64,000 nucleotides of DNA from Vandiemenella viatica (Eukaryota; Arthropoda; Insecta; Orthoptera; Morabidae). The translations under genes were made by a program, and so were the position numbers. The stretch is from assembly GCA_031002005.1 (NCBI GenBank), contig JARYHS010004247.1:1-64000 (forward strand), in the 5' to 3' direction. The notes under the pieces are model-generated. The model worked only from the letters and a program-made list of their open reading frames with translations, was not told the origin of the DNA and did no database searches. Shown in pieces: positions 4,381-58,675 of this stretch (position 1 is its first letter; each line of letters starts with the position of its first letter).

Positions 4381-4644
4381 ATATGATACAGGCTGGTGCC
4401 CACCTCGTGATTAAAAATAAATTTGATTGATACTGGTTGCTACCGAGGTGTAACCACCACTGGGCACGATGGAAGGCTAATACCACACACAATGTTCAGT
4501 GATCTGCTCACGGTGTTTATAGCTGTAAAGTGAAAAAATAGGTACATAAATGTCTTAGGTCGAAATATAAGAATGTTATCCATTGACCAATTTCAACCAC
4601 CATATCTCCCACACCGCATAGCTACATATCGCAGACGACTAGTG

Positions 4645-4864
4645 TTGTATGTGGTAAAGGCCTCGGGTCTCCCATTGTGCACTATGATGGTTACATAACG
4701 GTAGATGTGGGGGTTTGAGAAATATGGTGTTTAGCCTGTGGCATTTTCACATTTCGACAAAATTCATAATGTCCTCATATTTCTTTTATAGCCGAAACTA
4801 CCTAGCACAGACCACTGCCGCTTTTTATGTAACAATAACAGGGAGTCACTGATCGTTCGCAACA
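4645..4864. repeat. Left arm of inverted repeat inside satellite
   Basis: This stretch is the reverse complement of 5404-5631. The inner ends are CTGATCGTTCGCAAC (4850-4864) and GTTGCGAACGATCAG (5404-5418). The outer ends match around GTATGTGGTAAAGGCC and GGCCTTTACCACATAC. The arms are about 220 bp and the spacer about 540 bp. Confidence 0.85.
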
Positions 4865-5403
4865 CCAAGGGAGACTTCAGGATAATGCCACACACAATCA
4901 TCAGAAGTAGACTGCGCTAGGTAGCACTGGCTGTAAAGTGAAATATGTGGACACACATGTATATTTTTATGTCAGGCCCATGACTTTCCACCACCATATC
5001 TATCAAACCTCCACAGCTACCGACATGCAATTACCATAGTGCACGACGGAATACTCCAGGCTACTACCACACACACATGCCTGTGGTCTGCGGTTGGTAG
5101 TTCTGGCTGCAAGGTGAAATATAAGGACACAGACGTCTTTGGTAGAAATAGCAAAATGTCCCACGTCTACCACTTTCAACCACCATATCGCCAACTCCCC
5201 ATAGCTCCCGACAAGTAACCAAAACTATGGAAGACTCTATGTTACTACCACAAACAAACACCAATGGTCTGTGTTATATAGTTGTGGCAAGAAAGAGGAG
5301 TATGGGGACACGCAAGTCATTAGTCGAAATTTAAAAAATACCTACATACACCAATTGTAACCACGTTTCTCCCACACTCCCACAGCTGACGGCATTCGGA
5401 AAA

Positions 5404-5631
5404 CGTTGCGAACGATCAGTGACGCCGTGTTATTGTTACATAAAAGCGGCAGTGGTCTGTGCTAGGTAGTTTCGGCTATAAAAGAAATATGAGGACATCA
5501 TGAATTTTGTCGAAATGTGAAAATGAAACAGGGTAAACACCATATTTCTCAAACCCCCACATCTACCGTTATCTAACCATCATAGTGCACAATGGGAGAC
5601 CCGAGGCCTTTACCACATACAAACACTAGTC
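5404..5631. repeat. Right arm of inverted repeat inside satellite
   Basis: Partner of 4645-4864. This arm is in the normal satellite orientation (GTGGTCTGTGCTAGGTAGTT), so the left arm is the inverted one. Confidence 0.85.
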
Positions 5632-5759
5632 GTCTGTGATTTGTAGTTATGATAACTAAGTGAAATACATGTGAGTAGATGGAGTTTGGGGCTCTTATGG
5701 AGGGGGCTGACGGCTGGACCAAAAAAGTGTAATCGCTAGCCCCGCCCCCTTCCCTCCTT

Positions 5760-6300
5760 GTAACTTATATCCCCCTCCTCCCCCTCCATGTAACCTGATA
5801 CCCTCCAGTCGACCTTGAAACACCTACCTCCCCTCTCCACTAACCTCAGTTCCCCCTCCTTGTAACCTGATACCCAACCACTGACCTTGAAACCTCAGTT
5901 TCCCCTCCTTATAACCCGATACCCTGTCATTGACCTTGAACCCTCTGTTTCCCCTCCTTGTAACCTGATACCCTACCATTGACCTAGAAATCGGGCAGGT
6001 GTTCCACTGTAACCTGAAACCCTACAGTTGGCCTTGAAACCTGATACTCTATGCAGGAGTTCCTTACCTGTTGTAACCCGATATTCTATGCAGGTGTTCC
6101 ACTGTAACCTGAAACCCTGCCGTTGGCCTTGAAACCTGATACTCTATGCAGGTTTTCCACTGTAAACTGAGATCCTGTAACCCGATAACCCCCGGTGTAA
6201 CCGGATATCCTGCATATGACCTTGAATTCGAAACCGCGGGCAGGTAAAAAAATGTTGTAACCTGATAACCCGCGCAAGAAACCGGTTTATAGAGCGGGCG
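5760..6300. repeat. Short tandem units at left arm tip
   Basis: Repeated phrases GTAACCTGATACCC, TTGACCTTGAAACC and ACTCTATGCAGG recur with a period near 86 bp in the clearest part (TTCCACTGTAACCTGAAACC at about 6001 and 6087). The mirrored array is at about 9960-10460. These resemble subterminal repeats of foldback elements. Confidence 0.7.
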
Positions 6301-7384
6301 GGCGAACAAAAACCGGTTCTCGCTACCTGGAAACGTGCTGGGGTAAGACGTTCACGTATTTACGCTTGGCTAGTCGACTCGCTCTCTTTGTTTGATGTTA
6401 GGACATTCATGAATTGAAGTTTAATAATAATAAATTTAGGTGTTTGTTTAAATAAAAATACATTGTATTTAATTTGATTTGTTTTTTATTTCTCCTACCA
6501 TTGGGCAATTAAAAATACATTTTCAACGGCACATACAGCATTGCAAATATGTGTCCTTCACAAAGTTTTGTCAAATTATTTTTCTTGAGTTCTCGTAGAG
6601 GCGAACACACTAAATCTTCAATATTGTAGGAGACAATAGTCTTATTACAATTACAGAGACATTTGGTGTCGTAAAGATGTTCCTCGATATTAAATTATTT
6701 TTAAACTCACTTCTTTCTGATCTTTGTCTGCATACGTTAGTCAATATTCCACATATAAATTACAACCATTTGAACTAGGTGGGTGAGCATTGAAGTCTTA
6801 GTTAGGTGTTCGGGAGGTTCCGGGTTCATTTCTAGACTATTCATATTTTCCGAAACCACGCTATGGAAATGCTGCGGTGGTTCCTTTTATAAAGGCACAC
6901 TTTGTTAGAAGTAGTGAAGAATATGTAATGTACCCAAAAATTAATGAAGAACGTTATGATGCGTCCATGCTTTGGATTCCTTTTAGTTTTTCCTTGGCTC
7001 AGTGCTTTATGCTTCGCGGCCAGGAGACAGAGTTTGTGGGAATGTTCGAAGTTAGTAACACTATCATAGTTTATTTATTTAAAGATGAATGAGATTAAAA
7101 ATAACGATAACAACGCCAACCTGGACTACACTGCATGCATTTTCATTGAGTTAATGAAATTCACTTTCATCTCTCGTAGTTCTAGGGTATAAAATATATT
7201 TAAGGATAGTACAACTTTCCTAACAGTCATCATATAGCTAGGTGAAACTTTCTGACGAATTTTTATGACTAGTTACGTATTGGGGATTTCATTTTAATGT
7301 CTCCATTTTATTCCTCGATAGTTCTTAACTCATATGGCATTTACTTTCTGTTACTGTAAAAGCATCTTAAGTAATCACAGATCT

Positions 7385-7620
7385 TTTAGCGCCAGAGCGA
7401 CTTAGAGGTTAAAGCATCTCACTGGAGACTGAAAGGTCCCCGGTTCGAATTTCCGTATCGGTGGTGTAGATGATGACCGAGCCTGGTGAGTGCTGCCTTG
7501 TGTTGGGATAAGAACTGTCCACATCACGTTGTTCGCTATGTGCCCTATGGGGTTTGTACACGAGATCCGTTTAGACTTCGGAACAGACTCGTACACTGAC
7601 ACTGATGAAAAATTTAAAAA
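7385..7620 (+). mobile_element. tRNA-derived SINE (family 3) at palindrome centre
   Basis: The head contains GACTTAGAGGTTAAAGCATC as a box-A-like region and GGTTCGAATTTC as box B (7440-7451). A body of about 150 bp follows and ends in an A-rich GATGAAAAATTTAAAAAATGA tail. A mirrored, partial copy of the head lies at 8311-8410 on the minus strand. Homology with that copy stops inside the SINE body just after ACCGAGCCTGGT. The SINE therefore appears to predate the inverted duplication, whose inner breakpoint falls inside it. Confidence 0.65.
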
Positions 7621-8310
7621 ATGATCTAATATTTTCTACAACATTGAGGACGTTATCTCCGGCGAATTCCTGTATTGCGACCGTAGGGCTTTTTAAATCG
7701 GTGTAAAGTGAGCGAATTTTTACGCGTTTGACAGTCTGCTAGCTGAAGAGTGAAGATCAAATGACCCGTCCACAAAAACGAAATTGTTTAAGGGCTTCTC
7801 TGCCCATCCCGAAACACATTACTGTAGGCTTGTTAGCCACGACATAGACGGAGCGCGTGGTAAATCGAAACTCCATTACTTTCTAATGTGAATTGCTATT
7901 CGAGGTCTCCCGACCAAATAAACAAAGAAACATTGTCTCAAATGGCTATGAATAAAAAAATCATCCCTTCCTGCCGACACAAACACAACTAAACCCATTT
8001 TTCGTTGTCAAAGTGATCGCAGTGACTCTAGGCGAAAAAAGGCTATTTGTGTTTAAAGTACTACTACAACATATAATAATAAACATTCGGACTGGGAATT
8101 GAGCCTCCCACATGACATTCCCGAACGTTAAAAACTAGCCCATCATGCCCGTTATTTAGGTCAGCATTTAAAATAACAACTCTGAAAGCACGACGAATAA
8201 CTCATGCACTCGCCTGATGTGATTTTTGGGAAACAGAAAGAAAACCTGACTGTAATACTGTGCTGCATATCCTCGCCAACTACAGATCCGAACGCTACTG
8301 CTCACCAACC
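7621..8310. other. Unique spacer of palindrome 1
   Basis: Single-copy centre between the arms. I see no protein motif or RNA gene. Confidence 0.5.
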
Positions 8311-8410
8311 AGGCTCGGTCATCATCTACACCACCGATACGGAAATTCGAACCGCGGAACCTTTAAGTCTCCAGTGAGATGCTTTAACCTCTAAGTGGCT
8401 CTGGTGCTAA
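8311..8410 (-). mobile_element. Partial mirrored copy of the family 3 SINE head
   Basis: Reverse complement of roughly 7388-7491, including the box B equivalent (GAAATTCGAACC at 8341-8352). It lacks the SINE body and the A-rich tail. Confidence 0.7.
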
Positions 8411-10543
8411 AAGATCTGTAATTACTTGAGATGCTTTTATAGTAACAGAAAGTAAATGCCGTATGAGTTAAGAACTATCGAGGAATAAAATGGAGACATT
8501 AAAATGAAATCCCCAATACGTAGCTAGTCATAAAAATTCGTCAGAAAGTTTCACCTAGCTATATGATGACTGTTAGGAAAGTTGTACTATCCTTAAATAT
8601 ATTTTATACCCTAGAACTACGAGAGATGAAAGTGAATTTCATTAACTCAATGAAAATGCATGCAGTGTATTCCAGGTTGGCGTTGTTATCATTATTTTTA
8701 ATCTCATTAATCTTTAAATAAATAAACTATGATAGTGTTACTAACTTCGAACATTCCCACAAACTCTGTCTCCTGGTCGCGAAGCATAAAGCACTGAGCC
8801 AAGGAAAAACTAAAAGGAATCCAATTCATGGACGCATTATACCGTTCTTCATTAATTTTTGGGGACATTACATATTCTTCACTACTTCAAACAAAGTGTG
8901 CCTTTATAAAATGAACCACCGCAGCATTTTCATAGCGTGGTTTCGGAAAATATGAATAGTCTAGAAATAAACCCGGAACCTCCCGAAGACCTAACTAAGA
9001 CTTCATTGCTCACCCACCAAGATCAAATGATTGTAATTTATATGTGAAATATTGATTAACGTATGCAGACAAAGGCCAGAAAGAAGTGAGTTTAAAAATA
9101 ATTTAATATCGAGGAACATCTTTACGACACCAAATGTCTCTGTAATTGTAATAAGACTATTGTCTCCTACAATATTGAAGATTTAGTGTGTTCGCCTCTA
9201 CGAGAACTCAAGAAAAATAATTTGACAAAACTTTGTGAAGGACACATATTTGCAATGCTGTATGTGCCGTTGAAAATGTATTTTTAATTGCCCAATGGTA
9301 GGTGAAATAAAAAACAAATCAAATTAAATACAATGTGTTTTTATTTAAACAAACACCTAAATTTATTATTATTAAACTTCAATTCATGAATGTCCTAACA
9401 TCAAACAAAGAGAGCGAGTCGACTAGCCAGGCGTAAATACGTGAACGTCTTACCCCAGCACGTTTCCAGGTAGCGAGAACCGGTTTTTATTCGCTACCTG
9501 CTCTTCAAACCGGTTTCTTGCGCGGCGTATCGATTACAAACCGGTTGCCGGTGAGGGGTTTCGAATTCAAGGTCAGAGGCAGGTATTTTGATGTTTTGCC
9601 GTTGAGACAATTTATATAATCCTCCATCTGCAGCTTTCAATTGACGGAGCACGTGACACCTTTAGCCCGTCTAAAGATTGAAGATTTGGGATGTCCACCT
9701 CTACGAGAACTCAAGAAAAGTAATTTAATAACACTTTGTAAAGGATACATATTTTGTAATGCTGTGGGTGTGCCGTTGAAAATGTATTTTTAATTGCCCA
9801 ATGGTGGGTGAAATAAAAAAAAATCAAATTAAATACAATGTGTTTTTATTTATACCAACACCTAAATTTATTATTAAACCTCAATTGATGAATGTCCAAG
9901 CCAAGCGTAAATACGTGAAAGTATTACCCCAGCACGTTTCCAGGTAGCGTGAACCGGTTTTTTCTTCGCCCGCCCGCTCTACAAACCGGTTTCTTGGTCG
10001 GGGTATCAGGTTGCAACAGGTTTGTACCTGCCCGCGGTTTCGAATTCAAGGTCAGAGGCAGGATATCAGGTTACATCGCGAGGAATCGGGTAACAGGATC
10101 TCAGGTTACAGTGGAGCACCTGCATAGAGTATCAGGTTTGAAGTCCAACGGCAGGGTTTCAAGTTACAGTGGAACACCTGCATAGCATATCGGGTTACAA
10201 GGCCAACGGAAGATTTTCAGGTTACATTAGAACACCTGCAAGGAGTATCGGGTTTCAGGCCAACGTCAGGATCTCAGGTTACAATGGAACACCTGTCCGA
10301 TTTCAAGGTCAACGGTAGGTTTTCAGGTTAACAGGGGGGGGGGGACTGAGGTTAATGGAGAGGGGAGGTAGGGGTTTCAAGGTCGACGGGAGGGTATCTG
10401 GTTACATGGAGGGGGGGAGGGTGATATCAGTTACAAGGAGGGGAGGGGGCGGGGCTATCGATTACAATTTTTTGGTCCAGGATACTAGCCGTCAGCCTTC
10501 TCCAAAAGCGCCTATGTAGCCGTCAGCCGCCAACTCCATCTAC

Positions 10544-11540
10544 TACTGTGGCATATGTCTTTGGTCGATATACGAAAATATCCCTGATAGCCCATTTTAA
10601 CCACCAAAGATCCCACACGCTCACTGATACCAACATTCGACCAACGTTGTGCATGTTGGGTGACTCCACGCTATTACTATATTTAATCAAGAGTGGTCTG
10701 CATTAGCTAGTTTTTTATTAGAAGTGAACATAGGGGCACACACGTTTTTGGTCGAAATATGAAAGTCGGCCATTTTCAACCAACATATATCCCACGGCCC
10801 CATAACTACTGACATACTGCCACCATGGTGCAAAATAGAAGACTCGACCATACTACCACACACAAACATAAGTGGTGTGCGCATTGAAGTTGTCACAGCA
10901 AAGTGAAATTTACAGACACACATGTCTTAAGTCGAAATACCAAACTGTTCTTGATTGACCACTTTCAACCACAATATTTCCCACATCACCACAGGTACCG
11001 ACATTAACAATGCGCTGTGCATGATCTGCGACTCCATGCTACTACCACACAGAAACAGCAGTGGTCTGCGCTATGTAGTTATTGCTGCAAAGAGAAATAG
11101 TTGGACACACATTTTATTGGTGGAACCGAGTGTGGTGTAGCGGTTAGCGTTCTGGCCTCGCCTTCGGTAGGACGGCGGTTCGAATCCCCGTCCGGGCATC
11201 CAGATTTGGGTTTCCCATGGTTTCCCAAATCACCCCAGGGGAATGCTGGGATGCTTCCTTCAAAAGAACATGGCCGAATTCCTTCCCATTCATTGCCCCC
11301 CATCCTTACCCGTCTCTAAAAACCTCGCTGTTAAGAGAAGTTAAGCAATTAAAAAAATATATATTGGTGTAAATATTAAACTATCCCAGCACAACTATTT
11401 TCAACCACCGTATCTCCTACACCCCCGATTGCTACCGGCATTCGAAGAATGTTGTGCATGATGGGAATCTCCATACTACTACAACACACAAACTTCAGTG
11501 ATCTGCACTAGGTAGTAGTGGCTGCAGAGTGAAATATACC
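10544..11540. repeat. Satellite array, ~185-bp monomer, right block
   Basis: Continuation of the satellite at 4437-5672 in the same orientation. Monomer landmarks are at about 10598, 10788, 10968 and 11402 (TTTCAACCACCGTATCTCC). The larger gap between the last two is explained by the SINE at 11123-11361. Confidence 0.8.
11123..11361 (+). mobile_element. tRNA-derived SINE (family 1), intact copy
   Basis: The head carries GAGTGTGGTGTAGCGGTTAG (box A region) and GGTTCGAATCC (box B, about 11179). The body contains the GGGTTTCCCATGGTTTCCC module, and the end is AAGCAATTAAAAAAATA. An 8-bp target duplication, TATTGGTG, flanks it at 11115-11122 and 11362-11369. Two more copies lie at 21908-23286 (split) and 22420-22625 (minus strand). 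The body is shared with the 3' region of LINE-B at 26615 and 33110. Confidence 0.85.
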
Positions 11541-13728: not shown

Positions 13729-15764
13729 TTTTTTTTTTTTTTTTTTTTTTTTGCTGTCGTCAGTCTTTCGACTGGTTGGATGCATTCCTCCATCCTTTCA
13801 TATCCTGTGCTAACCTCTTAATTTCTACACACCCCTTGCAGCCCACGTCCTCAATTATCTGCTTCATATATTCTAATCTCTGTCTTCCTCTACAGTTCTT
13901 ACCTTCGACTGTTCCCTCCACTAACAAATTAACCAATCCAGTATGTCTAAAAATTTGACCTACCAGCCTGTCTCTTTTTTCCATAAGCATCTTCCACAAA
14001 CTTCTTTTCTCACCCATCATTTCCAAAACTCATTCAATTCTTATTTCTTCTGTCCACTTAATTTTCAGCATTCTTCTGTAGCACCAAATTTCAAATGCTT
14101 CAATTTTCTTTCATTCCGGTATTCCTGAAGTCCACGTTTCGCTACCATAAAGAGTTGTGCTCCACACAATGAGTTTCAAAAAGTTCTTTCTAATTCCTAG
14201 GTCAATATTTGAAACTAAAAGGTTTCTCTTTTTCATGAAGGCTCTTTTTGCTAGTACTATTCTGCTTTTGACATCATTCCTGCTTCAGCCATCGGTTGTA
14301 ATTTTATTTCCCAAGTAACAGAATTCTCTTACTTCTCCTATTGCATCCGATCCTATTTTTATATTTAATCTACTAGTATTGGTATCATTTTTGCTACATT
14401 TCATCACTTTTGTCTTGCTTTAATTTATATTCAGTCCAAAATCTTCCTTCAGTATTTTGTTCACGCCTTTCAGTAACTTCTCAATATCCTCAGCCCTCTC
14501 TGCTAACAAGACAATGTAATCAGCAAATCGTAGCATACTGATTTTTTCTCCCTGAAAACTTATGCCACATGGAAATTTTTCTTTGACTTTCTTCATTGCT
14601 TCTTCTACGTACAAGTTGAATATTAACGGGGATTGACTACAACCTTGTCTACTTTACCTTCAACCATTTCCTTTTCAACTTCTTCAGATTTTTCTTGTAG
14701 CCATTATTCTTTTGTTAATTTGCATTTCCTATTTATTTGATTTCTAAATTGCCTGTACTGCTCTCTTCCTGCTTCATCCTGAGCATTTATGTACCTTCTC
14801 CTCTGATCCATCAGCTCCAAAATTTCATCTGTGATCCATGTTTTTTGGGCAGATTGTTCCCTAAAGCCTAATGTTTCTTTACCAGCTTTCATTATTTCAG
14901 TCTTTAATGCATTCCATTCGTCCTCGGTTGAGCTCCATTCAGAGTTACTTCTTAGACCCAAGTCTACTATTTCTGCAAATTTTTATCTCGTGTTAGATTG
15001 TTTCAGTTTATTCACTTCCAGTCTGTTCTGCTTATACTGCTTCCTTATTCGCTTAAATTTCATCCTGTACTCCATTATTATCAAATTATGGTCCGAGTCT
15101 ATGTCTGCCCCTGGGTACGCTTTACAGTCTAGAACTTGATTCCTGAATCTCTGTTTGACCATGATATAATCTAGCTGATATCTGCCTGTATCCCCAGGAC
15201 GTTTCCAGGTGTAAGTTCTTCTGGCATGGTTCTTAAACAGTGTGTTTCCCACTACTAGCATATATCTTTCACAAAATTCTAGCAACCTGCTTCCTCGTTC
15301 ATTTCTTTCTCCTAGACCAAAATTTCCTACAGTATTCCCATCTTTTCCTTCTCCCACTATTACATTCCAATCACCCTTGATTATTAGATTTTCCTCCCCC
15401 TTCACATTTTGAATTAATTCTTCAATTTCAGCGTATATTTTTCCTATTTCTTCGTCATCTTCCTGTGATGTTGGCATATACACTTGTAATAATGTTGTTG
15501 GGACGGGCTTAGTTTCTAACCTAATCAAAATAATCCTGTCACTAAACTGTTCATAATAAATCACCCGTTTCCCTACTTTTTTGTTCATTACAAATCCTAC
15601 ACCAGTGACTCCATTGACAGCTTGTGTGCTAATTATCCTGTGTTACCCAGACCAGAAATCCTGTGCGTCCTTCCATTTAATCAAACTTAAGTTGTTCCAT
15701 CTCTCTTTTTAAGTTTTCTAACCTACCTGCCCTATTCAGACTTCTAACATTGCACGCTCCGCCC
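13729..15764 (-). pseudogene. RTE-like LINE, endonuclease and RT remnants
   Basis: On the minus strand the order is: NVRSLNRAGRLENLKREM (about 15740), then an endonuclease frame at 15588-14983 with LIIKGDWNVIVGEG, LLEFCERYMLVVGNTLF, TYTWKRPGDTGRYQLDYI and DSDHNLII. These are typical of apurinic-type endonucleases of LINEs, with the GDWN and SDH motifs intact. A linker follows (14961-14704). The RT keeps only its second half: SPLIFNLYVEEA near 14630 and LRFADYIVLLAE near 14540, where the usual second aspartate of FADD is tyrosine. Most of the RT N-terminal half is deleted near 14700. The C-terminal end near 13880-13760 reads RGRQRLEYMKQIIEDVGC and is followed by a poly-T run (13730-13752), the poly-A tail of this reversed element. 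It is dead. Confidence 0.85.
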
Positions 15765-15779
15765 AGGCATTTTAGGTTT

Positions 15780-16850
15780 TAACCTATAAAAAAAAAATGT
15801 AGAGCTGAAATTTGGCTCAGACGTTCCTTAGTACCTTAGAAACAAGTCATCAAAAGTCCCCACAACTAGGGTGTCCGCGTCATAGTTTTTTTTAGGTCAA
15901 AAGGGCTTAAATAGGGATTGAGTGCCAAATCTGTATAAACTCATTGTAAAATTTAAAATGTCAGACTCTGTAACGTTTTATTGAACCCTAGGTAATTAGG
16001 ATAGGCTAACCACTGCATAAAAGTGTAATATCGGCACTATTATTATTTAGAAGTAAAAGTATAGTCACATTTTATCATGAAGGCAGTACGAAACATAACT
16101 TTCTTTTTTCAATTTCTCTGCATTGCGGAATAACTGTCAAAGTTACCAGGTCGGGACCTATGATAAAAGTTGTAGTACACACTTTCAGCATTAAAATGGT
16201 ATATCGTTCATCCCTCTGCGACATATGGTTGTCGAGATACACGTTGAAACAAGCACACGTGAGTCAACGCTGGGCCGAGAGCTCCGCGCACCGCTCCCCA
16301 GCCATTATGGGTATTAACGTGAAAAAAATATAATGTAGACCTGAAAATCGGTACAGATATTACTTAATACCTAAGAATCATGTCTTGAAAAGTCTCCATC
16401 TCTGAGGTGTCCTGTTCATAGTTTTATTAGGGTAAAAGTTTTTAATTAGGGCTTAAATGTAATAATCAGTATAAACGTCTTGTAGGTCTTAAAATATCAC
16501 CTTTTGTATCATTTAATTGCACTATAAGTAATTGGAAAAGCTAATTACTGAAAGACGGCGTAGTTTCGGACGTAATTATTGGACGGAAGTAAAAGAATCT
16601 CACATTTGATAGTGAAACAGGTACGAAATATGACTTGTTTTGTAACAAAGTCAGATTTGCTAAAAACTATCGAAGGCCTATTATCAAAGTTACATAACGC
16701 AGTTTCAGCATTGAAATGGTGTATTCATCATGTTTTTGTGACAAAACGGTTGGTGAGATATCATCGAAACATTCGAAACAACGCGCAGAGCTAAGCATAA
16801 GAGCCGTTCCACTTACCCTTCCTCGTCTGTCTGCATCATTCTAATCTCTT
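15780..16850. repeat. Two diverged ~540-bp direct repeats in left arm
   Basis: Unit 1 (about 15780-16310) and unit 2 (about 16318-16850) share, in order, AATGTAGA.CTGAAA, TAATACCTA/TAGTACCTTAG, GTGTCC.....CATAGTTTT, AGCATT.AAATGGT and a GAGATA block. Identity is moderate by eye. The mirrored pair occupies about 18700-19760. Confidence 0.7.
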
Positions 16851-16979
16851 CGAACAGTGCGCTGAGATTTTGTGCCCTTGGCATTATATCTAAACTGACA
16901 GAAAGAAACCTTGAAAATGACGAAACATTTTGCAAAATTGTAAATTATACAAATTTTTATTAAAATCTTTGAATGAAAT

Positions 16980-18060
16980 TTAAAGTTCAGCTTCATCATC
17001 ATACTCATCATCTGAACTATTATAGGTGACTTTATCGCATGCAGATCCTTCGACAATGTCCACACATTAGTTAACACTCCAGCCCACAACGCACACATTC
17101 AAATCTATTTCGCAGATGTTCTTACAATTGCAGGGCACCAAATTGAGGAGATGTTCCGGAGTAGGTGCAAGTCGATTAGTCACTAGCACAAGAGCTCCAT
17201 TCTGAATTTTCCATCCCAAATCTTCAGGACCTAAAGAATTTCCTAGCCATTCTTGAGTCTGTAAGTATATTCGTAGAGAATGGATGGCCAATATACCATA
17301 TATTCGTAGAGAATGTCGCTCACATGCTGCATATGTTGGTGGAAGGGACGCAAGCTGGAAGGATACAGTGACTGGTTGGGTTGCGAACTTACGACTGTAT
17401 TTTATTTCCAGAAGTTCATGGATATTTTGACACAGAGATATAAAATTGTCATAGAGGGCAACGGCAAACGTCTTTCTTGCGTATATTATGTCTTCTTTCT
17501 GTGCGTTGGGATGTTCGAATGTTTCCACTTTGTCATGCAGTACTGCAGAACCCTTCAATAACTTTCAGTCTTGTTTCTTTCCTTTGCCGAAAAGAACGCT
17601 GGCAGTATCCCACCCAGTGAATGCACGACTCTAGGGTGCAGAGTTTTTCATCTTTGTGATGGATTTGCAGAGTTCTGCCACGTTGAAGACCTTGCTAGCA
17701 GTTTTGCTTGTGACAGGTTGAACTACATTTATACGACTGCTTTCACTAAGTCTTGCTACCAACGAGGACATCCGTATCGTTGGAAATGACCGCTACCTCT
17801 TGACCCCTGCATTAATCAAGTGCAAACGATGCAATGCCGGCATCCGCATCTCCTTTACACTGAATGTCATGATGACCCGCAGTCTTCAATTTATTTACAA
17901 GTAATTCGACTAGCTCATTTATGTAATAATAGTTTTTCAAAAGCTCAGCTTGGAGTGAAGTGACAACCGTGTTGTGGTGACCGAAAACATTGGCAGATGT
18001 TTTCCCCCCGGCACATCGACGACGCTCCTCTCTTTCCGTTGCCATGTGTTCAGATCCATC
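16980..18060 (-). pseudogene. Decayed FEN/PIN-like nuclease with TSO1-like Cys-rich tail
   Basis: Minus-strand remnant in at least three frames. Near 17900-17830 it reads LLVNKLKTAGHHDIQCKGDA followed by DAGIASFALD. Near 17810-17760 it reads EVAVISNDTDVLVGSK. Near 17630 it reads AFTGWDTASVLFGKGKK. These three blocks match the acidic motifs of FEN1/XPG-type PIN nucleases in order (D.D, DTD, TG.D followed by a helix-hairpin-helix-like GKGK). The C-terminal half (17558-17067) has LPPTYAACERHSLRIY, EWLGNSLGPEDLGWKIQNG and PAPEHLL-like APTPEHLLNLVPCNCK. A frameshifted CGHCR and an acidic tail, NSSDDEYDDEAEL, end at stop 16982-16980. Cysteine pattern and order fit proteins labelled TSO1/tesmin-like CXC, often transposon-borne. 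The N-terminus is cut at the palindrome spacer. Assignment is from memory of the family. Confidence 0.7.
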
Positions 18061-18061
18061 G

Positions 18062-18572
18062 TTTGGCGTTGCCCTCTATGACAATTTTAAATCTCAGTGT
18101 CAAAATATCCATGAACTTCTGGTAATAAAATACAGTTCGTGAGTTCGCAACCCAACCAGTCACTGCATCCTTCCAGCTTGGGTCTCTTCCACGAACATAT
18201 ACAGCATGTGAGCGACATTCTCTACGAATATATAGTATATTGGCCATCCATTCTCTACGAATATACTTACAGACTTCAAGAATGGCTAGGAAATTCTTTT
18301 GGTCCTGAAGATTGGGGCTGGAAAATTCAGAATTGAGCTCTTGTGCTAGTGACTAATCGACTTGCACCTACTCCGGATCATCTCCTCAATTTGGTGCCCT
18401 GCAATTATAAGAACATCTGCGAAATAGATTTGAATGTGTGCGTGGTGGGCTGGAGTGTTAACTAATGTGTGGACATTGTCGATGATCTGCATGCGATAAA
18501 GTCACCTATAATAGTTCAGATGATGAGTATGATGATGAAGCTGAACTTTAAATTTCATTCAAAGATTTTAAT
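18062..18572 (+). pseudogene. Mirrored C-terminal half of the same gene
   Basis: The right palindrome arm repeats the C-terminal half on the plus strand: EWLGNSFGPEDWGWKIQN (about 18280), then a stop, then APTPDHLLNLVPCNYK and, in another frame, CGHCR with a stop, ACDKVTYNSSDDEYDDEAEL. Several differences from the left copy (GNSF vs GNSL, EDWGW vs EDLGW) show the arms have diverged since duplication. The nuclease half is absent here. Confidence 0.7.
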
Positions 18573-19776
18573 AAAAATTTGTATAATTTACAATTTTGCA
18601 AAATGTTTCGTCATTTTCAAGGTTTCTTTCTGTCAGTTTAGATATAATGCCAAGGGCACAAAATCTCAGCGCACTGTTCGAAGAGATTAGAATGATGCAG
18701 ACAGACGAGGAAGGGTAAGTGGAACGTCTCTTATGCTTAGCTCTGCGCGTTGTTTCGAATGTTTCGATGATATCTCACCAACCGTTTTGTCACAAAAACA
18801 TGATGAATACACCATTTCAATGCTGAAACTGCGTTATGTAACTTTGATAATAGGCCTTCGATAGTTTTTAGCAAATCTGACTTTGTTACAAAACAAGTCA
18901 TATTTCGTACCTGTTTCACTATCAAATGTGAGATTCTTTTACTTCCGTCCAATAATTACGTCCGAAACAACGCCGTCTTTCAGTAATTAGCTTTTCCAAT
19001 TACTTATAGTGCAATTAAATGATACAAAAGGTGATATTTTAAGACCTACAAGATGTTTATACTGATTATTACATTTAAGCGCTAATTAAAAACTTTTACC
19101 CTAATAAAACTATGAACAGGACACCTCAGAGATGGAGACTTTTCAAGACATGATTCTTAGGTATTAAGTAATATCTGTACCGATTTTCAGATCTACATTA
19201 TATTTTTTTTCACGTTAATACCCATAATGGCTGGGGAGCGGTGCGCGGAGCTCTCGGCCCAGCGTTGACTCACGTGTGCTTGTTTCAACGTGTATCTCGA
19301 CAATCATATGTCGCAGAGGGATGAACGATATACCATTTTAATGCTGAAAGTGTGTACTACAACTTTTATCATAGATCCCGACCAGGTAACTTTGACAGTT
19401 ATTCCGCAATGCAGAGAATTTGAAAAAAAAAGTTATGTTTCGTACTGCCTTCATGATAAAATGTGACTATACTTTTACTTCTAAATAATAATAGTGCTGA
19501 TATTACACTTTTATGCAGTGGTTAGCCTATCCTAATTACCTAGGGTGCAATAAAACGTTACAGAGTCTGACATTTTAAATTTTACAATGAGTTTATACAG
19601 ATTTGGCACTCAATCCCTATTTAAGCCCTTTTGACCTAAAAAAAACTATGACGCGGACACCCTAGAGGTGGGGATTTTTTATGACTTGTTTCTAAGGTAC
19701 TAAGGAACGTCTGTGCCAAATTTCAGCTCTACATTATTTTTTTCGAGGTTAGCCCTAAAATCTGTCTAAAATGCCT

Positions 19777-20220
19777 GTACTAATGTTTCTATAAATTCTG
19801 ATGACTCTATCCATTCTGATGACTCTTCCCTGAGCAGTCCCCACCCGGAGATTTGATTGGGGACTATTTTACCTCCGGAAAATTTTATCCAGGAAGAAGC
19901 CATCATGATATATGAAATTTGAGAAGATTACATGTCCTCGGGATATCCTTTGGGTCTTTAATGCAATTGTTTCCCGTTGCATTCTGCATCTCCATGCCGT
20001 TGATCATTTCTGATTCATCCGCCTTTAGGGGCCTTTTCCAACCCCAAGGGCAAGAGGGTGCCCTGAACCGCTCCCCGCTCATCCGCCCTCCTTTCAGAGG
20101 CCGTTGTCAAGCAGTGGGTGATTCCTTATACCGGGGATCTTTCAGTCGCCAGAGCCTCGTCCGTGCAAACAGGGTGCACCACGTGAAGGAGAGGTTGACA
20201 TTTGGTTGGAAAAAGGAGTA
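19777..20220 (-). mobile_element. Possible 5' part of the RTE-like LINE
   Basis: GC-richer block with CCCCACCCGGAGATTTGATT (19839), GCCTTTAGGGGCCTTTTCCA (about 20021) and CACCACGTGAAGGAGAGG. I associate such sequence with repeated insect DNA near RTE-like LINEs, but I cannot prove it. If correct, palindrome 2 inserted inside that LINE. The plus-strand 100-codon frame here is probably a shadow. Confidence 0.35.
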
Positions 20221-21901: not shown

Positions 21902-22129
21902 AAAGCTACCGAGCTTGGTGGGTGAACGGATAATGTTCTGGCCTCGCATTCGGGGTGACGCAGGTTCGAATCGCCGTCCGGGCATCCAGATTTGGGTTTC
22001 TATGGTTTACCCAAATCAATCCAGGCAAACTCCGGGATGCTTCCTTCAAAAAGACAATAGAAGAATTCCTTCCTGTTCCTTGTCCCCAGTCCCATCCCGT
22101 CTCTAACCCTTTGACTGCTGTAGACGCGT

Positions 22130-22270: not shown

Positions 22271-22419
22271 CTCTTAGCGGCCTGGCTATGAAGCCATATT
22301 TCCACCCAGGGTGGTTAGTTGTTTTCCTCATTCGGCCCTTGAGCATTGGCAGCTGCGATCTAATTTGTGTTGCTCTTTTCCTTTTAGTTTTCGCTGAGAA
22401 AATGGCATACAGTCATTAT

Positions 22420-22625
22420 TTTTTTAACTGCTTAACGTCTCTTAACAGCGAGGTTTTTAGAGATGTTAAAGAATGGGGGGCAAGGAATGGTAAGGAATTC
22501 GGCTATGGCCTTTTGAAGGAAGCATCCCGGCATTCACCTGGAGTGATTTGGGGAAACCATGGAAAACCCAAATCTGGATGCCTAGACGGGGATTTGAACC
22601 ATCGTCCTCCCGAATACGCCGTCGT
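22420..22625 (-). mobile_element. Reversed SINE (family 1) inside the piggyBac-like element
   Basis: The reverse complement contains GGTTCAAATCCCCGTCTAGG (box B side), the CATGGTTTCCCCAAATCACT module and AACCTCGCTGTTAAGAGACG near its end, matching the intact copy at 11123. It has lost its 5' head at about 22625. Confidence 0.8.
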
Positions 22626-24734: not shown

Positions 24735-27700
24735 CAGCGGGAGGTGGTACTGCGGTTTATGTAAAGAACACGATTAAACATTATCTGATCAATTTGCCAC
24801 CTTTGGAGGAAATCGAAACCGTTGAGACTTCCCGAAGGAGACAGACTCTGCAGAAACCTCAATTACATAGACTGGGACATCTTCAAGGACCTCCTCTCCC
24901 AGCGCATAGCTCAGGCACCGCCATCGTCTGTCTCTGGCCCCTCTACCGCTCTGGCCGCCTTGGTATTGGATCAGTGAGGCATAAGATGCCGCTACCTGGC
25001 CAAGACGCAACCAACCGTCCCACTGGCGGCAACTCTCTCCGCAAATCAGAGAGGCTATTATCATCAAAAATCAACTGACTAGGATCTGACACAAAGAGAG
25101 CAATAAGTCGCATTCAGCGAGAAATTAATGATGAAGTGAACAAGCAAAGGATCTCGTACTGGTCCAACTTTATTTCCAACATGGACATAGAGGACGGGCC
25201 AGCATGGTGCACGACGTAGGCCCTTCTCCAGCGGAGCCATAAGATACCGCCGCTGGTGGTCGGAAATAACTACATCTGAGAGCCAGAAGAGAAGGCACTG
25301 ACTGAAACTTTTGAGGCAAATGTTTAGCCAATCAATGAATCCAAGGATGACGTCATCATACGTCTCGTGGAAGAACCACTGCGGTGGATCCTCGAAGCCG
25401 TCACCCCGGAGGAAGACCGCATCGACGAGATCACTACACGAGAGGTTGCGTCAACATGGATTCAGAAAAGGCCGATGCTGCGAAACACAACTTGCACTTC
25501 TAATTCATGACTTGTGCCGAATTATAGATGAGCAATCCCAGGTTGTTTTGGTTCTATTAGACTTTAAAAAAGCTTTCGATACTGTGCCTCACACTAGGTT
25601 ACTTATGAAACTTCGCGGTTACGGCATATCTAGACAAATATGCGACTGGGTTGCAGACTTCCTGAAGGGCAGAACACAGTGTGTAGTTCTCGACGGTGAG
25701 CGTTCATCACTTACTGAAGTGGGGTCTGGAGTTCCCCAGGGAAGCGTGTTAGGGCCACTGTTGTTTCTCATATACATCAATGATCTATGCGACATAATAG
25801 GGGGGATGAAAAGATTATTTGCCGATGATGCTATAATTTATCGCGAAATCAAAACCCAGGACGACTGCGCTTTGTTACAAGACGATATTATGAAAATAAT
25901 TGCGTGGTGTAAAGATTGGCAGTTGGAGTTAAACGCTAAAAAGTGCCAAGTCATGCGTGTAAGTAAAAAGGTGACACCATTTAACTATGAATATACGATT
26001 AATGACACTGTCCTTAGAACGGTAGATTCTGCTAAATACCTAGGGGTAACAATTCGTAATAATTTGTCGTGGAATGAGCATATCGAGAATGTAATGGGAA
26101 AAGCAAATCGTATGCTCCGATTTCTAGGTCGTAATTTAAATCAATGCACCCAGGAAGTTAAATCGATTGTATACAGGTCACTAGTACGTCCTTACTTAGA
26201 GTATTGTTGTTCTGTATGGGGTCCCCATCAAAAGGGGTTAATTGAGGCATTAGAGATGGTCCAAAGAAGAGCCGCCCGATTCGTGACAGGTATATATAGT
26301 TGGAGGGAAAGCGTAAGTGCGATGTTGAAGGAGTTAGGTTGGGAAGACCTGGAACACCGAAGGCGTTGCTCTCGACGGAAGCTAATTGAAAAATTCAAGA
26401 CAGATGTATTTCGGAATGACAGTCAGCAAATATTGCTACCAGCAACATTCATATCTCGAAATGACCATGAAAACAAGATAAGAGAAATCAGGGCCAGAAC
26501 CGATTCATTTCTGTACTCATTTTTCCCACGAGCGATTAGGGAATGGAATAGAAAGGATTTACCGGGCGAGTAAACTTAAAATCCGACAGGAGTAGCTTTC
26601 GATAAAGCACTCCAGCCATCCTGATCTGGGTTTTCCATGGTTTTCCCAGATCACTCCACGCGAATGCGGAGATGGTTCCTCACAATAGCCCATGGGCGCC
26701 TCTTGCCATATCCCTTATAACCCTTCCAAACCATAACCCTTTTCGATAGGTGCAATGCACACTCCGCCACACACTTTTAGTGAATCGCGGAGTAACAATA
26801 ATAATAATAATAATAATATTCTCGAGCCTCATAGTAAAGAGATCAGCAGGACAAGATGGCATCGGTGGAGGTATCCTTCGTCAAATGCCTCAAACTGCTG
26901 TCTAATTTATAACAGACGCCTTCAATGGAGTTTTTCAAAAGGGTGAATATCCAACTACATGGAAGCACGCTACTATAATTCCGATTCCGAAGTCGGGCAA
27001 GGACCGGAGATCCCCAAGTCGTACCAGCCGATTAGTCTTCCGCCGACGCTCTTCAAAGTTTTCGATTGACTTAACGTCAAGAGGCTACACGCGGTCATTG
27101 CCAGTGAGGCGCTGCTGACTGGTGAACAATTTGGCTTCTGTAAACACCACTCAACCCCACAGCAGCTGCTCCGTCTCACTGAAGAGGCTTTCTTTGCCTT
27201 CGAGCGCCAGGAATTCGTCGGTGCAACTCTGCTTAATGCCAGTCAGGCCTTTGACTCCGTCTAGCATCAGGGACTCCTTTACATGCTGCTTAAGCAAATG
27301 TTAAGCTTCTGAAGCACTACCTCGAAGGAAGGCCTTGTGAGTTGTCATAGAAGTTGGCATCTTAACTATCAAGAACATCTCGGCAGGGGTCCCAAAAGAG
27401 TCAGTCATTGGATCAGTGCAGTACAGCTTGTATACGGCGAAACCCCCTCTACAAAACGTGTGCAAAAAGTTCCATACCGCCCTATATGCAAAGAGCCTTA
27501 ATGCTAACATCCCACGCAGAAGGCTACAGCAGGCCTGCGAAAACATTTAACAATGGGATACCAAATGGTGGCTAGCTTACAATATTCTCAAGAACTAGGC
27601 CACTGTCATCACTAAGACCTTTGACTGTCTTCGGCGAAAATATAAGCTGGATGAGGACGGCAAAATACCTCGGGGTCAAACTTGATAAAAGGATGACGTG

Positions 27701-30310: not shown

Positions 30311-30559
30311 TATGAAAGATAAGTCTTTCCCGGCGTATTATTGATACAAATTCTTCGCGGGTTTGCCGCCGGATCACATTTTCTAACCACAAGCTTTCGG
30401 CGACTTGCACTGCCGCCATCATCAGGTCTGTTTTAACTGAAGGAACAGTTTTCGTTGTTCCTTCAGTTACAACAGACCTGATGATGGCGGCAGTGCAAGT
30501 CGCCGAAAGCTTGTGGTTAGAAAATGTGATATGGCGGCAAACCCGCGAAGAATTTGTAT
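30311..30559. mobile_element. Penelope-like inverted module with 13-bp target duplication
   Basis: Sits in LINE-D between duplicated CAATCTAATTTCA at 30298-30310 and 30560-30572. The two halves are near-perfect inverted copies of one ~100-bp module, joined at about 30450. Each half holds CCTGATGATGGCGGCAGTGC, AAGTCGCCGAAAGC and later GGCGGCAAACCCGCGAAGAA. One end has an extra 30 bp with a GATACGCCGGGAAAGAC-like segment, seen also at 58300. Class inferred from 13-bp target duplications and the hammerhead-like core; no protein is present. Confidence 0.65.
30478..30508 (+). ncRNA. Hammerhead-like core in Penelope-like module
   Basis: CTGATGA (30478-30484), one T, stem GGCGGC (30486-30491), loop, stem GTCGCC (30499-30504), then GAAA (30505-30508). 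The stem pairs fully with one G-U. This is the order of a hammerhead core, but the T before the stem and no clear cleavage-site strand make activity doubtful. Equivalent copies: 28437-28467 (CTGATAA, G to A in the core) and 58223-58254. Confidence 0.4.
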
Positions 30560-31111
30560 CAATCTAATTTCAGATAGTAAACAATCAACACAATTATTCA
30601 TTAGAATAATGAATAGCAATGGTCCCAATACGCTACCCTGCGGCACTCCCATTTTTACTTCCACTTCCTTTGATACCGCATTTCCCACACTAACTTTCTG
30701 TTTTCTACATTTTAAAAATTCTTCTACCCAGCAAATCACTTTCCCATCAACTCCAATAGTTTTTACCTTATTTACTACCATTTTGTTGCTTACTCTGTCA
30801 AACGCCTTTGAAAGATCTAGTGCTACAATATCAGTTTGGCCTCCCAAGTCCATTTCATCTGAAATATCTTGCATATATCCCACCAACTGAGATTCACATG
30901 AATATCCTTGCCTGAACCCATGTTGCCTACTTGAAAACCACATACGTTCTTCACATACATTTCTGATGTGGTTGCATATCAATCTTTCCATTAATTTACC
31001 TACCACTGAAGTCAAACTGATTGGCCTGTAATTTTCGACTCTATTCCTCACCCCTCCTTTATCTACCGGTACTACTATTGCACTTTTCCAGTCTTGTGGT
31101 AAGATGCTCAT

Positions 31112-32779: not shown

Positions 32780-33310
32780 TCTGTATGGGGTCCCCATCAA
32801 TAGGGATTAATGGAGGCATTAGAGATGGTCCAAAGAAGAGCCGCCCGATTCGTGACAGGTATATATAGTTGGAGGGAAAGCGTAAGTGCGATGTAGAAGG
32901 AGTTAGGTTGGGAAGACCTGGAGCACCGAAGGCGTTGCTCTCGACAGGAGCTAATCGAAAAATTCTCGACTGATGTATTTCGGAATGACATTAAACAAAT
33001 ATTGCTACCAGCAACATTCATATCCCGGAATGACCGCGAAAATAAGATAAGAGAAATCAGGGACAGAACCGATTCATTTCTGTACTCATTTTTCGATAAA
33101 GTACTCCGGCCATACTGATCTGGGTTTTCCATGGTTTCCCCAGATCGCTCCATGCGAATGCTGGGATGGTTCCTCACAATAGTCCATGGGCGCCTCCTGC
33201 CATATCCCTTATATCCCTTCCAAACCATTACCTTCCCGGATAGGTGCAATGCACCCTCCACCACACACTTTTAGTGAATCGCGGAGTAGTAGTAATAGTA
33301 ATAGTAATAG
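32780..33310 (+). mobile_element. LINE-B second copy, strongly 5'-truncated
   Basis: Starts CTGTATGGGGTCCCCATCAA, matching 26214 onward. It keeps VQRRAARFVTGIYSWRESVS, the GGGTTTTCCATGGTTTCCCC module and the ending GAATCGCGGAGTAGTAGTAA with a TAATAG tail. It interrupts LINE-C between ORF1 and the endonuclease. Confidence 0.85.
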
Positions 33311-36012: not shown

Positions 36013-38061
36013 CACAAATATATACCGACTAGACGACTCGTGCGAAAATTTCGCGAATAAAATGCGATGAACAGTGAGGTTGAATGCTTGTAATATAATG
36101 AAAAGTAGAACCGTACTATTGTAGCAATTTTTGTTTGTTTGTGTGTGTGTTTGTGTGTGTTTGTGTGTGTAATAGGTACACATCAAAATACTCGCAACAT
36201 ATTATGAAACAGTTAGGAAAATTTAAAAAAAACTCTGTATTTATGACAAACTGTCACTGACCTTAGCAGAATAAATTGAACCTGAACAAAATGATGCACA
36301 GAACGTATCAATATCTCTGAAATATTTGTTGCTGTGCGAGGTAAATTAATACCTGATGACAGAAAAATGCGTTGTAAAAATACTAATACTTTTGCCCTCT
36401 AAGGTCAGAATTTTGAAAAATTTCTTTCTTAAAATGTGATAACGGAACCGAAGACATTACAAAAACCTCAATCTTTAAAACGATACCTCTTTTATCATTT
36501 TGTTTAATTGTTAAGGGAGATAAATGCTCCAGATACAAAAAACGCATTTTAGAAAAATTGACATGTTTACCCTTTAAGGTTCAAATTACAAAAAATTCCT
36601 TTCTTAAAATATAATGTTACCACGGCGGTGACCTTATTCTTTTATATGATACCTCATTTATCTACATCTGTTAGATACTAAGGGAGATAATCGCTAGTGA
36701 CACAAAAATGCGTTATAGAAAAATTTATACTTTTTCCCTTTATGGGATGAATTCAAAAAACATTCTTTCTTAAAATATGATGTCACAAAGCTGAAACATT
36801 ACTCCTTATAATCCTACTTTATTTATCGATTTTGGTTAGATATCCAGGGAGATAAATGGCTCGAGATACAAAAAACACATTTTAGAATAATTGACATTTT
36901 TTCCCTTTATGAGTCGAATTACGAAACATTCCTTTCTTAAAATAAAATGTTACCACGGCGGATACCTTATTCTATAAAATGATACCTCATTTATCTATAT
37001 CTGTTAGATATTAAGGGAGATAAATTGCTCGTGACACAAAAATGCGTTATAGAAAAAATTATACTTTTTCCCTTTAAGGGTTGAATTCCAAAAACTTTCT
37101 TTCTTAATATGTGATGTCATAAGGCTGAGACAATATTTTTCATAATCTTACTTGATTTATCGATTTTGGATAGATATCCAGGGAGATAAGTAGCGCGAGA
37201 CACAAAAAAAACCTATTTTTGAAAAATTGACAGTTTTGCCCTTTAAGTATCGAATTACGAAAAATTCCTTCCTTAAAATATAATGTTACCACGGCAATGA
37301 CCTTATTCTTTAATATGATACCTCATTTATCTATATCTGTTAGTTATTAAGGGAGATAAATCTCTCGTGATACAAAAATGCGTTATAGAAAAATTTATAC
37401 TTTTTCCCTTTATGGGATGAATTCAAAAAACATTCTTTCTTAAAATATGATGTCACCAAAGCTGAGACAATATTCCTCATAATCCTACGTCATTTATCGA
37501 TTTTGGTTAGATATCCAGCAAGAAAAATGGCTCGAGATACAAAAAACGCATTTTAGAAAATTGACATTTTTGCCCTTTAAGGGTCGAATTATGAAAAATT
37601 CATTTCTTGAAATGTAATGTTACCACGGCGGAGACTTCAGTCTTTAATATGAGACCTAATTTATCTATATCTGTTAGATATTAAGGGAGATTAATCGCTC
37701 GTGACACAAAAACGCATTTCAAAAATATTGATACTTTTGCCCTTTAAGGGTCGAATTCCGAAAATTTTCCGTCTTAGTATATGAATTCACTAAAGCGGAG
37801 ATCTTAATCTTTAAAATGATACTTCATTAAACGATTTCAGATAGGTATCCAGGGAGATAAATGATTCATAACACAGAAAACAGCATTATAGAAATATTGA
37901 TATTTTGCCCTTAAAGGTTCTAATTCCGAAAACTTTATTTCTTTAAATATGATGTAACCAAAGTGGAGACCATATGCTTTAAAATGACACCTCATTTATT
38001 GATTTCGGTTAAGTATGAAGGAAGATACAGGCTTGTGACAAAAAATACCTTATAGATATAA
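36013..38061. repeat. Satellite inside LINE-C, 168-bp monomer
   Basis: A monomer mark (TTAAGGGAGATAA or CCAGGGAGATAA) recurs at about 36512, 36677, 36846, 37012, 37179, 37348, 37517, 37682, 37850 and 38018, spacing about 165-170 bp. TTAAGGG and CCAGGG types alternate through most of it, so the real unit is a dimer of about 336 bp. The first ~300 bp is unlike the monomer and contains a TGTGTGTTTG-like tract. It interrupts the LINE-C coding sequence between RT and RNase H. Confidence 0.85.
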
Positions 38062-51609: not shown

Positions 51610-52184
51610 TGGTTGAGCGATTTCTTATTTTTCTTTCCGTCGGCCGCGGGCAACTATGTTCGCGGCGGAATAAAGGTCAGTTGGCGTAATTCAGACATCC
51701 ACTGGTCTATGCAATATTTGCGTGCCTTGTTCCACAAGGAAATTATATATGTGGGACTTTTCTTGTTTTTATGAGTGACTATTGTTGTTACGATCACGTC
51801 CGCGACGATTAAGCTCGCGTACAAATCATCATAGCGAATTAAGCTATTTATTTGACTGTCGGCGAGTTCTGCCACAAGTTTCGGAGTAAAGTAAAGTTGT
51901 GTTCTATAACTCAGATTTCGGTGCATCCTGGTTGCATCTTGCTGCAAATAATAGCTGGTGTCATGTTATAGTATTAACATGCAAATCGACGCTACTATCA
52001 TAAGGTGAGTGGATTTCTGGTTTTTTTGCGCTATTACTGGCCAAATCGCTGCTGCCGAATTTCGGTGTCTGTGGTCGGCGGAAGTGGAGAGAAATCGCTC
52101 ACCAATTAATTAATCACGGTTATGTTCCCTGCGGGAAGTCACTATTTATACGTGGCTTTCCCAAGATAGATTATCCATCATCTA
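51610..52184 (+). repeat. 5' LTR of the BEL element
   Basis: Starts TGGTTGAGCGATTTC and ends GATTATCCATCATCTA. It matches the 3' LTR with few differences by eye (for example GCAACTATGTTCGCGG vs GCATCTATGTTCACGG), so insertion was fairly recent. A TGGTCCTCCTGGGG segment just downstream (about 52191) is a possible primer-binding site. Confidence 0.95.
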
Positions 52185-52283
52185 TTTTTTTGGTCCTCCT
52201 GGGGTCGGATATGACACGATCAGTTTGATTAATATAATCTTTGTATAAGCAAGTTACGCTATACTTCAATCATATTTTACAAT

Positions 52284-57440: not shown

Positions 57441-57451
57441 TAGGGGTGATT

Positions 57452-58334: not shown

Positions 58335-58347
58335 TTAGGGGTGATTA

Positions 58348-58658: not shown

Positions 58659-58675
58659 AAGGGGGGGGGGGAGCA
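58659..58675 (+). promoter_or_regulatory. Polypurine tract
   Basis: AAGGGGGGGGGGGAGCA sits directly before the 3' LTR, as expected for plus-strand DNA priming. Confidence 0.85.

What the first reader, a model, noticed from the sequence alone, without database searches (positions are those of the whole stretch)
15765..19776. 4-kb palindrome carrying a FEN-like nuclease/CXC gene
Seen: arms of about 1.7 kb with mirrored ends and a ~590-bp spacer. The minus strand shows the ordered blocks GDADAGIA, VISNDTDVLV and AFTGWDTAS, then a WLGN..GPED.GWK region and a C.C..C-rich end with an acidic tail. Known: the ordered acidic blocks are those of FEN/XPG-type nucleases; CXC tails bind DNA. Inference: this could be a mobile element that encodes a structure-specific nuclease, which would suit a hairpin-rich palindromic element, or a captured gene. 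The arms contain only the C-terminal half, so the palindrome formed by inverted duplication of a truncated copy.
Basis: partly seen in the sequence, partly recalled or inferred. Interest (0 to 1): 0.78.

Follow-up and report, generated by a model that had tools for sequence, protein, structure and literature searches.

The report
Dead fold-back transposon with nuclease gene
A stretch of animal (probably insect) DNA holds two mirror-image copies of one end of a dead jumping gene whose relatives make a flap-endonuclease-like protein; it resembles mirror-image elements already known from fruit flies, in what looks like a different transposon family.

Summary
The palindrome is real: arms 15764-17470 and 18060-19777 (1667 matches, 38 mismatches, 8 indels), 589-bp spacer, identical 12-bp ends, no target duplication found. 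Each arm also holds two diverged tandem ~520-bp end modules. Raw tblastn with relatives confirms a decayed minus-strand gene whose last ~150 codons recur in the opposite arm (E 8e-72). The long relatives are 1303-1626 aa. The family profile hits human Exonuclease 1 (6e-9), so the FEN/XPG reading holds. The tail is CXC-like, weakly supported. The upstream part matches DUF6589 and keeps invariant Asp/Asp/Glu columns, consistent with a transposase. The gene has 3 frameshifts and 4 stops; three lesions are shared by both arms, so it was probably dead before the palindrome formed. Best reading: a dead fold-back derivative of an Academ-like transposon, paralleling Galileo, where ORF ends enter the terminal repeats. 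Whether one end was copied inverted or two inverted neighbours fused is open.

The parts
15764..17470 (.). left arm of the palindrome (1707 bp): element end, two tandem end modules, 3' untranslated part, last ~150 codons of the gene remnant
18060..19777 (.). right arm (1718 bp), inverted copy of the left arm
17471..18059 (.). spacer (589 bp) holding the middle part of the gene remnant (relative P0001 residues ~125 to ~320)
15764..15775 (+). element end CAGGCATTTTAG
19766..19777 (-). element end CAGGCATTTTAG, mirrored
15764..16297 (+). outer end module A of the left arm
   Evidence: 68% alike to module B by blastn
16299..16810 (+). inner end module B of the left arm, in direct tandem with A; it begins with a degenerate copy of the element end (CAGCCATTATGG)
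18721..19777 (-). mirrored end modules B and A in the right arm (inner edge approximate, from the arm-to-arm register)
16980..18060 (-). decayed gene: FEN/XPG-type nuclease part, conserved linker, CXC-like Cys-rich end, acidic tail, stop codon 16980-16982; 3 frameshifts and 4 in-frame stops; everything before P0001 residue 125 missing
   Evidence: raw tblastn; frameshift-aware alignment; start of remnant; stop codon read
18044..18533 (+). inverted copy of the gene's 3' part (P0001 residues 318-469 by tblastn)
16956..16961 (-). AATAAA, possible polyadenylation signal ~20 nt after the stop
   Evidence: sequence; meaning of the signal recalled
14983..15763 (-). left flank: LINE endonuclease coding sequence that abuts the element end (Exo_endo_phos_2 match within 14983-15642; the rest up to 15763 judged by eye against a recalled LINE motif); not part of the element

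Best explanation
A dead, non-autonomous fold-back derivative of a DNA transposon. Shown: two inverted copies of one transposon end (tandem end modules, 3' untranslated part and last ~150 codons) flank a 589-bp piece of the same gene; long relatives have a DUF6589/Asp-Asp-Glu region, a FEN/XPG nuclease domain and a CXC-like tail; this copy is broken, and three of its lesions are shared by both arms. Inferred: the parent was an Academ-type (AcademX-like) cut-and-paste transposon. A break that removed its 5' two thirds was repaired by copying the 3' end in inverted orientation past the end modules into the ORF and joining it at codon ~125 of the P0001 numbering, much as proposed for terminal-repeat extension in Galileo; later exchange between the arms homogenised their middle. 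The palindrome would be a by-product of repair, not a substrate that its own nuclease serves. My split: identity as a dead derivative of this family about 0.9; this route rather than fusion of two copies about 0.6 to 0.65.
For: Palindrome and ends. Gene identity by raw tblastn, E 8e-72; 0 hits in 200 random sequences. Relatives: 122 at E<=0.001 among 7991 scored candidates, 120 listed, 6 of the listed named Dryococelus australis, 2 Frankliniella occidentalis, 2 Littorina saxatilis. EXO1 profile match 6e-9 running from VFDG to the GCD..S..G.GK block; acidic columns kept in 71 to 73 of 73 rows; weak NCBIfam matches to DNA polymerase I (2 of 25, best 8.8e-4), flap endonuclease Xni (2 of 25, best 0.0016) and fen_arch (1 of 25, 0.0055). 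DUF6589 above cut-off in P0096 and at E<=0.5 in 7 of 25; D421, D588, E833 in 25 of 25. Shared lesions. Uneven arm divergence, reached in 1 of 500 random placements. Galileo precedent (ORF ends recruited into the terminal repeats, internal tandem repeats, repair model). AcademX encodes a nuclease and makes 3 or 4 bp duplications: (passage citing Kojima 2020).
Against: No target duplication found (exact 4-5 bp, or 6-12 bp with at most one mismatch, over 21 x 21 end shifts; 3 bp judged by eye at 10 symmetric shifts), which an inserted or in-place repaired element should show. Only the left flank looks like LINE coding DNA, so the flanks may not be contiguous (reading; not tested against a LINE reference). 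No other copy could be examined. The Academ label rests on one passage plus recall; neither an Academ sequence nor the primary paper was available. No structure supports the transposase reading; the profiles found no transposase among the PDB sequences; of the members whose DUF6589 bits I saw, only P0096 passes the cut-off, and DUF6589 itself is of unknown function. Shared lesions could also come from an older exchange between the arms.
Confidence: 0.58

Rival explanations
1. Two neighbouring copies of the same decayed transposon lay in inverted orientation, and a deletion or ectopic exchange removed both 5' parts and fused the remainders head to head.
For: Explains exact ends on both sides with no common target duplication, seemingly unrelated flanks (reading) and 38 mismatches plus 8 indels between arms. 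Galileo chimeric copies also lack matching duplications.
Against: Both arms share a frameshift, a stop and a ~33-bp tandem duplication, so both insertions would have to descend from one already dead copy moved in trans.
Confidence: 0.3
2. One reading: a mobile palindromic element that encodes a structure-specific nuclease to handle its own hairpins.
For: The protein family does carry a FEN/XPG-type domain.
Against: This copy lacks everything before residue 125 of P0001, first acidic block included, and has 3 frameshifts and 4 stops, with three lesions shared by both arms. Whether any relative sits in a palindrome is unknown: no DNA around a relative could be fetched.
Confidence: 0.05
3. A host FEN-like gene captured by a fold-back element.
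For: Only the nuclease and C-terminal part is present here.
Against: The relatives belong to a family whose long members (37 of 121 are 1303-1626 aa) carry DUF6589-type sequence and invariant Asp/Asp/Glu in the 25 aligned, with several distinct members from one species; EXO1 is only a remote profile match.
Confidence: 0.04
4. Assembly artefact from a fold-back read.
For: Palindromes can arise in libraries (recalled).
Against: 38 mismatches and 8 indels between the arms, unevenly spread.
Confidence: 0.02

Closest known systems
Academ transposons, AcademX lineage (Kojima 2020, known here only through a passage in PMC10045372)
   Same: DDD/E superfamily (passage in PMC9587614) whose AcademX lineage encodes a nuclease; that the nuclease is XPG-type is recalled
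   Different: No 3-4 bp target duplication found here; no Academ sequence could be compared
Galileo (P superfamily, fold-back-like; PMC4168063 one section and passages, PMC3573991 passages)
   Same: Long terminal repeats, direct tandem repeats inside them, 3' end of the ORF recruited into both, recombination and conversion between repeats proposed
   Different: Different protein family (no P-element family among the 25 Pfam families shown for 25 relatives); no 7-bp duplication found
Foldback / Tm1 elements (PMC3169594, passages)
   Same: Composite terminal inverted repeats with internal redundancy
   Different: Tm1 encodes a MULE-type transposase and makes 9-bp duplications
Human EXO1 (FEN/XPG nuclease superfamily)
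   Same: Ordered acidic blocks and a GCD..S..G.GK block align over ~200 positions, E 6e-9
   Different: Here a domain near the C-terminal end of a much longer protein; the window copy is incomplete and broken

Membership tests
FEN/XPG nuclease superfamily | ordered acidic blocks plus the block after them, aligned to a solved member | tested here: met
   Relatives: EXO1 E 6e-9 with A2 and 1.9e-6 with A3; D85 71/73, D125 73/73, D/E195 73/73, D197 73/73, D219 72/73, D221 72/73, D277 71/73
FEN/XPG nuclease superfamily | complete set of acidic blocks in the window copy | tested here: not met
   Remnant starts at P0001 residue 125: the block around D85 is missing and the VFDGY block is cut at its Asp, whose codon straddles the arm/spacer junction
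FEN/XPG nuclease superfamily | Pfam XPG_N / XPG_I at curated cut-off | tested here: not met
   Best XPG_I 0.019 and XPG_N 0.18, one of 25 members each; none for the remnant
CXC (TSO1/tesmin-like) | Cys spacing and a profile match to a CXC protein | tested here: inconclusive
   8 invariant Cys in 15 rows; only PDB match LIN54 at E 0.37, 0.0072 with P0002 alone; Pfam TCR 0.45 in P0002, preSET_CXC 0.35 in P0048; neither passes its cut-off
Academ / AcademX transposons | DDD/E transposase core | tested here: inconclusive
   D421, D588, E833 in 25 of 25 relatives, DUF6589 in 7 of 25 at E<=0.5; no fold available
Academ / AcademX transposons | encodes a nuclease | tested here: met
   In relatives; definition from the passage
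Academ / AcademX transposons | 3-4 bp target duplication | tested here: not met
   exact 4 bp at 21 x 21 shifts, 3 bp by eye at 10 symmetric shifts
Academ / AcademX transposons | sequence similarity to a reference Academ element | not testable with these tools
   No reference sequence held; primary paper not held
Fold-back (Galileo-like) element | long inverted terminal repeats with internal tandem repeats | tested here: met
Fold-back (Galileo-like) element | ORF end recruited into both terminal repeats | tested here: met
Galileo proper (P superfamily) | P-type transposase and 7-bp duplication | tested here: not met
   No P-element family among the 25 Pfam families shown (of 26 matched) for 25 relatives; no duplication

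The most novel reading that the evidence does not exclude
Palindromic copies are a regular product of this transposon group because its fused FEN/XPG-type nuclease processes hairpin or flap intermediates at the ends: mis-processing would copy one end onto the other, and such two-identical-end palindromes would then move in trans using the tandem end modules as extra binding sites.
Probability: 0.06. Interest if true: 0.65.

Novelty: new member of a known kind. Interest (0 to 1): 0.3.

Why it matters
[quoted passage not shown] A clear case in a transposon group with a different protein would suggest that this restructuring is general, and this locus would make it testable by counting copies with the same junction. 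It also points to a widespread protein family, many members unnamed or called hypothetical, that joins a likely transposase region, a flap-endonuclease-like domain and a CXC-like tail. For the single copy here the value is modest: it is broken and its genome could not be searched.

Tried and rejected
Pfam and NCBIfam on the remnant gave nothing meaningful. The first protein search found no relative at E<=0.001 among 1152 candidates. The second, with an altered and lengthened query, found P0001. P0001's length lay within the filter both times, so why one search missed it is not established; P0002 and P0003 were too long for the first. IMG/VR and bacterial/archaeal genomes gave no confirmed relative, so no DNA around a relative could be read and parent ends could not be compared. 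PDB searches with the remnant or P0001 alone gave only chance matches. Rfam and tRNA scans of the window were empty. Seven of ten paper searches found nothing usable, among them Academ with XPG, DUF6589, and transposase with flap endonuclease; some searches listed the papers I then opened, apart from PMC3573991, reached by its DOI. Passages on Academ in PMC10799480, PMC9783078, PMC8905726 and PMC9004415 did not describe an XPG domain. Considered and rejected: assembly artefact, captured host gene, functional nuclease element (see rivals).
Full report
OBSERVATION. The palindrome is as described, with small corrections. A local alignment of 15701-17600 with the reverse complement of 17901-19850 gives arms 15764-17470 and 18060-19777, with 1667 matches, 38 mismatches and 8 indels, and a 589-bp spacer (repeat finder). 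The shared ends are 12 bp, CAGGCATTTTAG, and occur exactly nowhere else in the window. No target duplication was found: exact matches of 4-5 bp, or 6-12 bp with at most one mismatch, were sought at 21 x 21 end shifts, and 3 bp were judged by eye at the 10 symmetric shifts printed.

INSIDE THE ARMS. Each arm carries two direct tandem modules: in the left arm 15764-16297 and 16299-16810, 68% alike by blastn. The inner module begins with a degenerate copy of the element end (CAGCCATTATGG). Between the arms, 16229-17048 differs at 5 of 820 positions, against 14 of 465 towards the ends and 19 of 422 towards the spacer; the strongest deficit found by the scan (16158-17048, 6 seen, 19.8 expected) was reached in 1 of 500 random placements. 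I read this as exchange between the arms (inference).

THE GENE. The remnant had no Pfam or NCBIfam match worth using and no relative in the first protein search. A second search with an altered and lengthened query found P0001 (469 aa, E 4.6e-96), P0002 (E 2e-7) and P0003 (a weak row at E 1.1). A profile of these three found 122 proteins at E<=0.001 among 7991 scored candidates, 120 of them listed; P0001 and P0003 score high there by construction. Using unedited window DNA, tblastn with the 121 proteins gave 279 matches, from 113 of them, all within 16983-18552. P0001 matches the minus strand at 18060-17764 and 17771-16998 (residues 125-469, E 8e-72) and the plus strand at 18044-18136 and 18138-18533 (residues 318-469, E 2e-19). 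The spacer and left arm thus carry the gene from residue 125 of P0001 to its end, and the right arm repeats only the last part. The codon that aligns with D125 straddles the arm/spacer junction. Random sequences from a second-order Markov model of the segment gave 0 matches in 200.

WHAT THE PROTEIN FAMILY IS. Of the 121 proteins, 37 are 1303-1626 aa long and 66 are under 700 aa, the latter at least partly fragments (fragments is inference). A profile of 73 of these proteins matches human Exonuclease 1 at E 6.1e-9, from VFDG through the DAD and DTD blocks to the GCD..S..G.GK block; a 25-row profile gives 1.9e-6. The corresponding acidic columns are kept in 71 to 73 of 73 rows. Single members reach XPG_I at only 0.019 and XPG_N at 0.18, one of 25 each, and NCBIfam shows a few weak matches to DNA polymerase I, Xni and archaeal FEN (best 8.8e-4, 0.0016, 0.0055; 2, 2 and 1 of 25) among unrelated ones of like strength, so the assignment rests on the profile. 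The C-terminal tail has 8 invariant cysteines in 15 typed segments; its only PDB match is LIN54, E 0.37, or 0.0072 with P0002 alone, and UniRef names some relatives Tesmin/TSO1-like CXC proteins. So CXC-like is likely, not proven. The part upstream of the nuclease matches DUF6589 (P0096 at 31.3 bits against a cut-off of 27; 7 of 25 members at E<=0.5) and holds D421, D588 and E833 in 25 of 25 members.

STATE OF THIS COPY. A frameshift-aware alignment of the unedited DNA with P0001 gives 175 identities in 337 aligned codons, 3 frameshifts (near 17763, 17110, 17046) and 4 stops (17814, 17633, 17567, 17073). The first acidic block and all other upstream parts are missing. The right arm alone shows 3 frameshifts and 2 counted stops, plus one stop in a codon aligned to no residue. 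It shares with the left arm the frameshift at residue 432, the stop at residue 445 and a ~33-bp tandem duplication. These shared lesions lie in the more diverged inner part of the arms, so a recent exchange is a poor explanation for them, though an older one is not excluded; the gene was most likely dead before the arms were made. It therefore is unlikely to have served the palindrome in this copy.

HOW IT AROSE. Two routes fit. (i) The 3' end of one element was copied in inverted orientation, past the end modules into the ORF, and replaced the 5' part. This parallels Galileo, where final pieces of the ORF lie in both terminal repeats, tandem repeats can lie within them, and repair of a broken end using the other end as template is a proposed cause (PMC4168063 section 10 read; PMC3573991 passages). 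(ii) Two inverted neighbours were fused by deletion or ectopic exchange; Galileo chimeric copies likewise lack matching duplications. Shared lesions favour (i); the missing duplication favours (ii). The left flank reads as LINE endonuclease in minus orientation (Exo_endo_phos_2 in 14983-15642; the residues up to 15763 judged by eye against a recalled motif), and I saw no continuation of it to the right of 19777, but I had no LINE reference to test this. I put (i) somewhat above (ii).

WHAT IT IS CLOSEST TO. By mechanism and anatomy: Galileo-type fold-back derivatives. By protein: probably the AcademX lineage, because a passage in PMC10045372 says AcademX encodes a nuclease and makes 3 or 4 bp duplications; that the nuclease is XPG-type is recalled, and the primary paper was not held. 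Membership in Academ is not claimed as shown: the duplication test failed and no reference sequence could be compared.

LIMITS. The window's own genome could not be searched (15 of 15 requests unanswered), so copy number, empty sites and full-length parents are unknown. The host is not identified; arthropod origin is inferred from the transposon company and from named relatives such as Dryococelus P0063 (40.5% identity to the read-through, second after P0001, which is unnamed).

Noticed in passing
5690-7509 and 8286-10512: A second, larger palindrome: inner 1139 nt 97% complementary, outer parts about 75-82% with short direct repeats of the CCTTGTAACCTGATACCC kind; none of the 121 family proteins match it by tblastn at 1e-3.
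   Followed up: partly
4439-5651 and 10536-11125: Diverged tandem repeats (spacing ~180-190 bp where adjacent) on both sides of the second palindrome, with a further inverted pair 4617-4863 / 5405-5651 (95%).
   Followed up: partly
51610-59254: BEL/Pao-type LTR retrotransposon: end repeats 51610-52184 and 58676-59254 96.6% identical, with DUF1759, Pao peptidase and integrase matches and a reverse transcriptase match just under its cut-off.
   Followed up: partly
30340-30563: Near-perfect short palindrome (108-nt arms, 97%, 8-nt loop) with related pieces at 57448-57566 and 58205-58337; looks like a hairpin-type MITE.
   Followed up: partly
11125-11319, 21908-22106, 22417-22614, 26611-26693, 33105-33192: Dispersed short repeat with a tRNA-like head (GGTTCGAATCC); probably a SINE (family not identified; ARAGORN found no tRNA gene in the window).
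   Followed up: no
36339-38067: Tandem array of diverged repeats (about 69-81% between copies).
   Followed up: no
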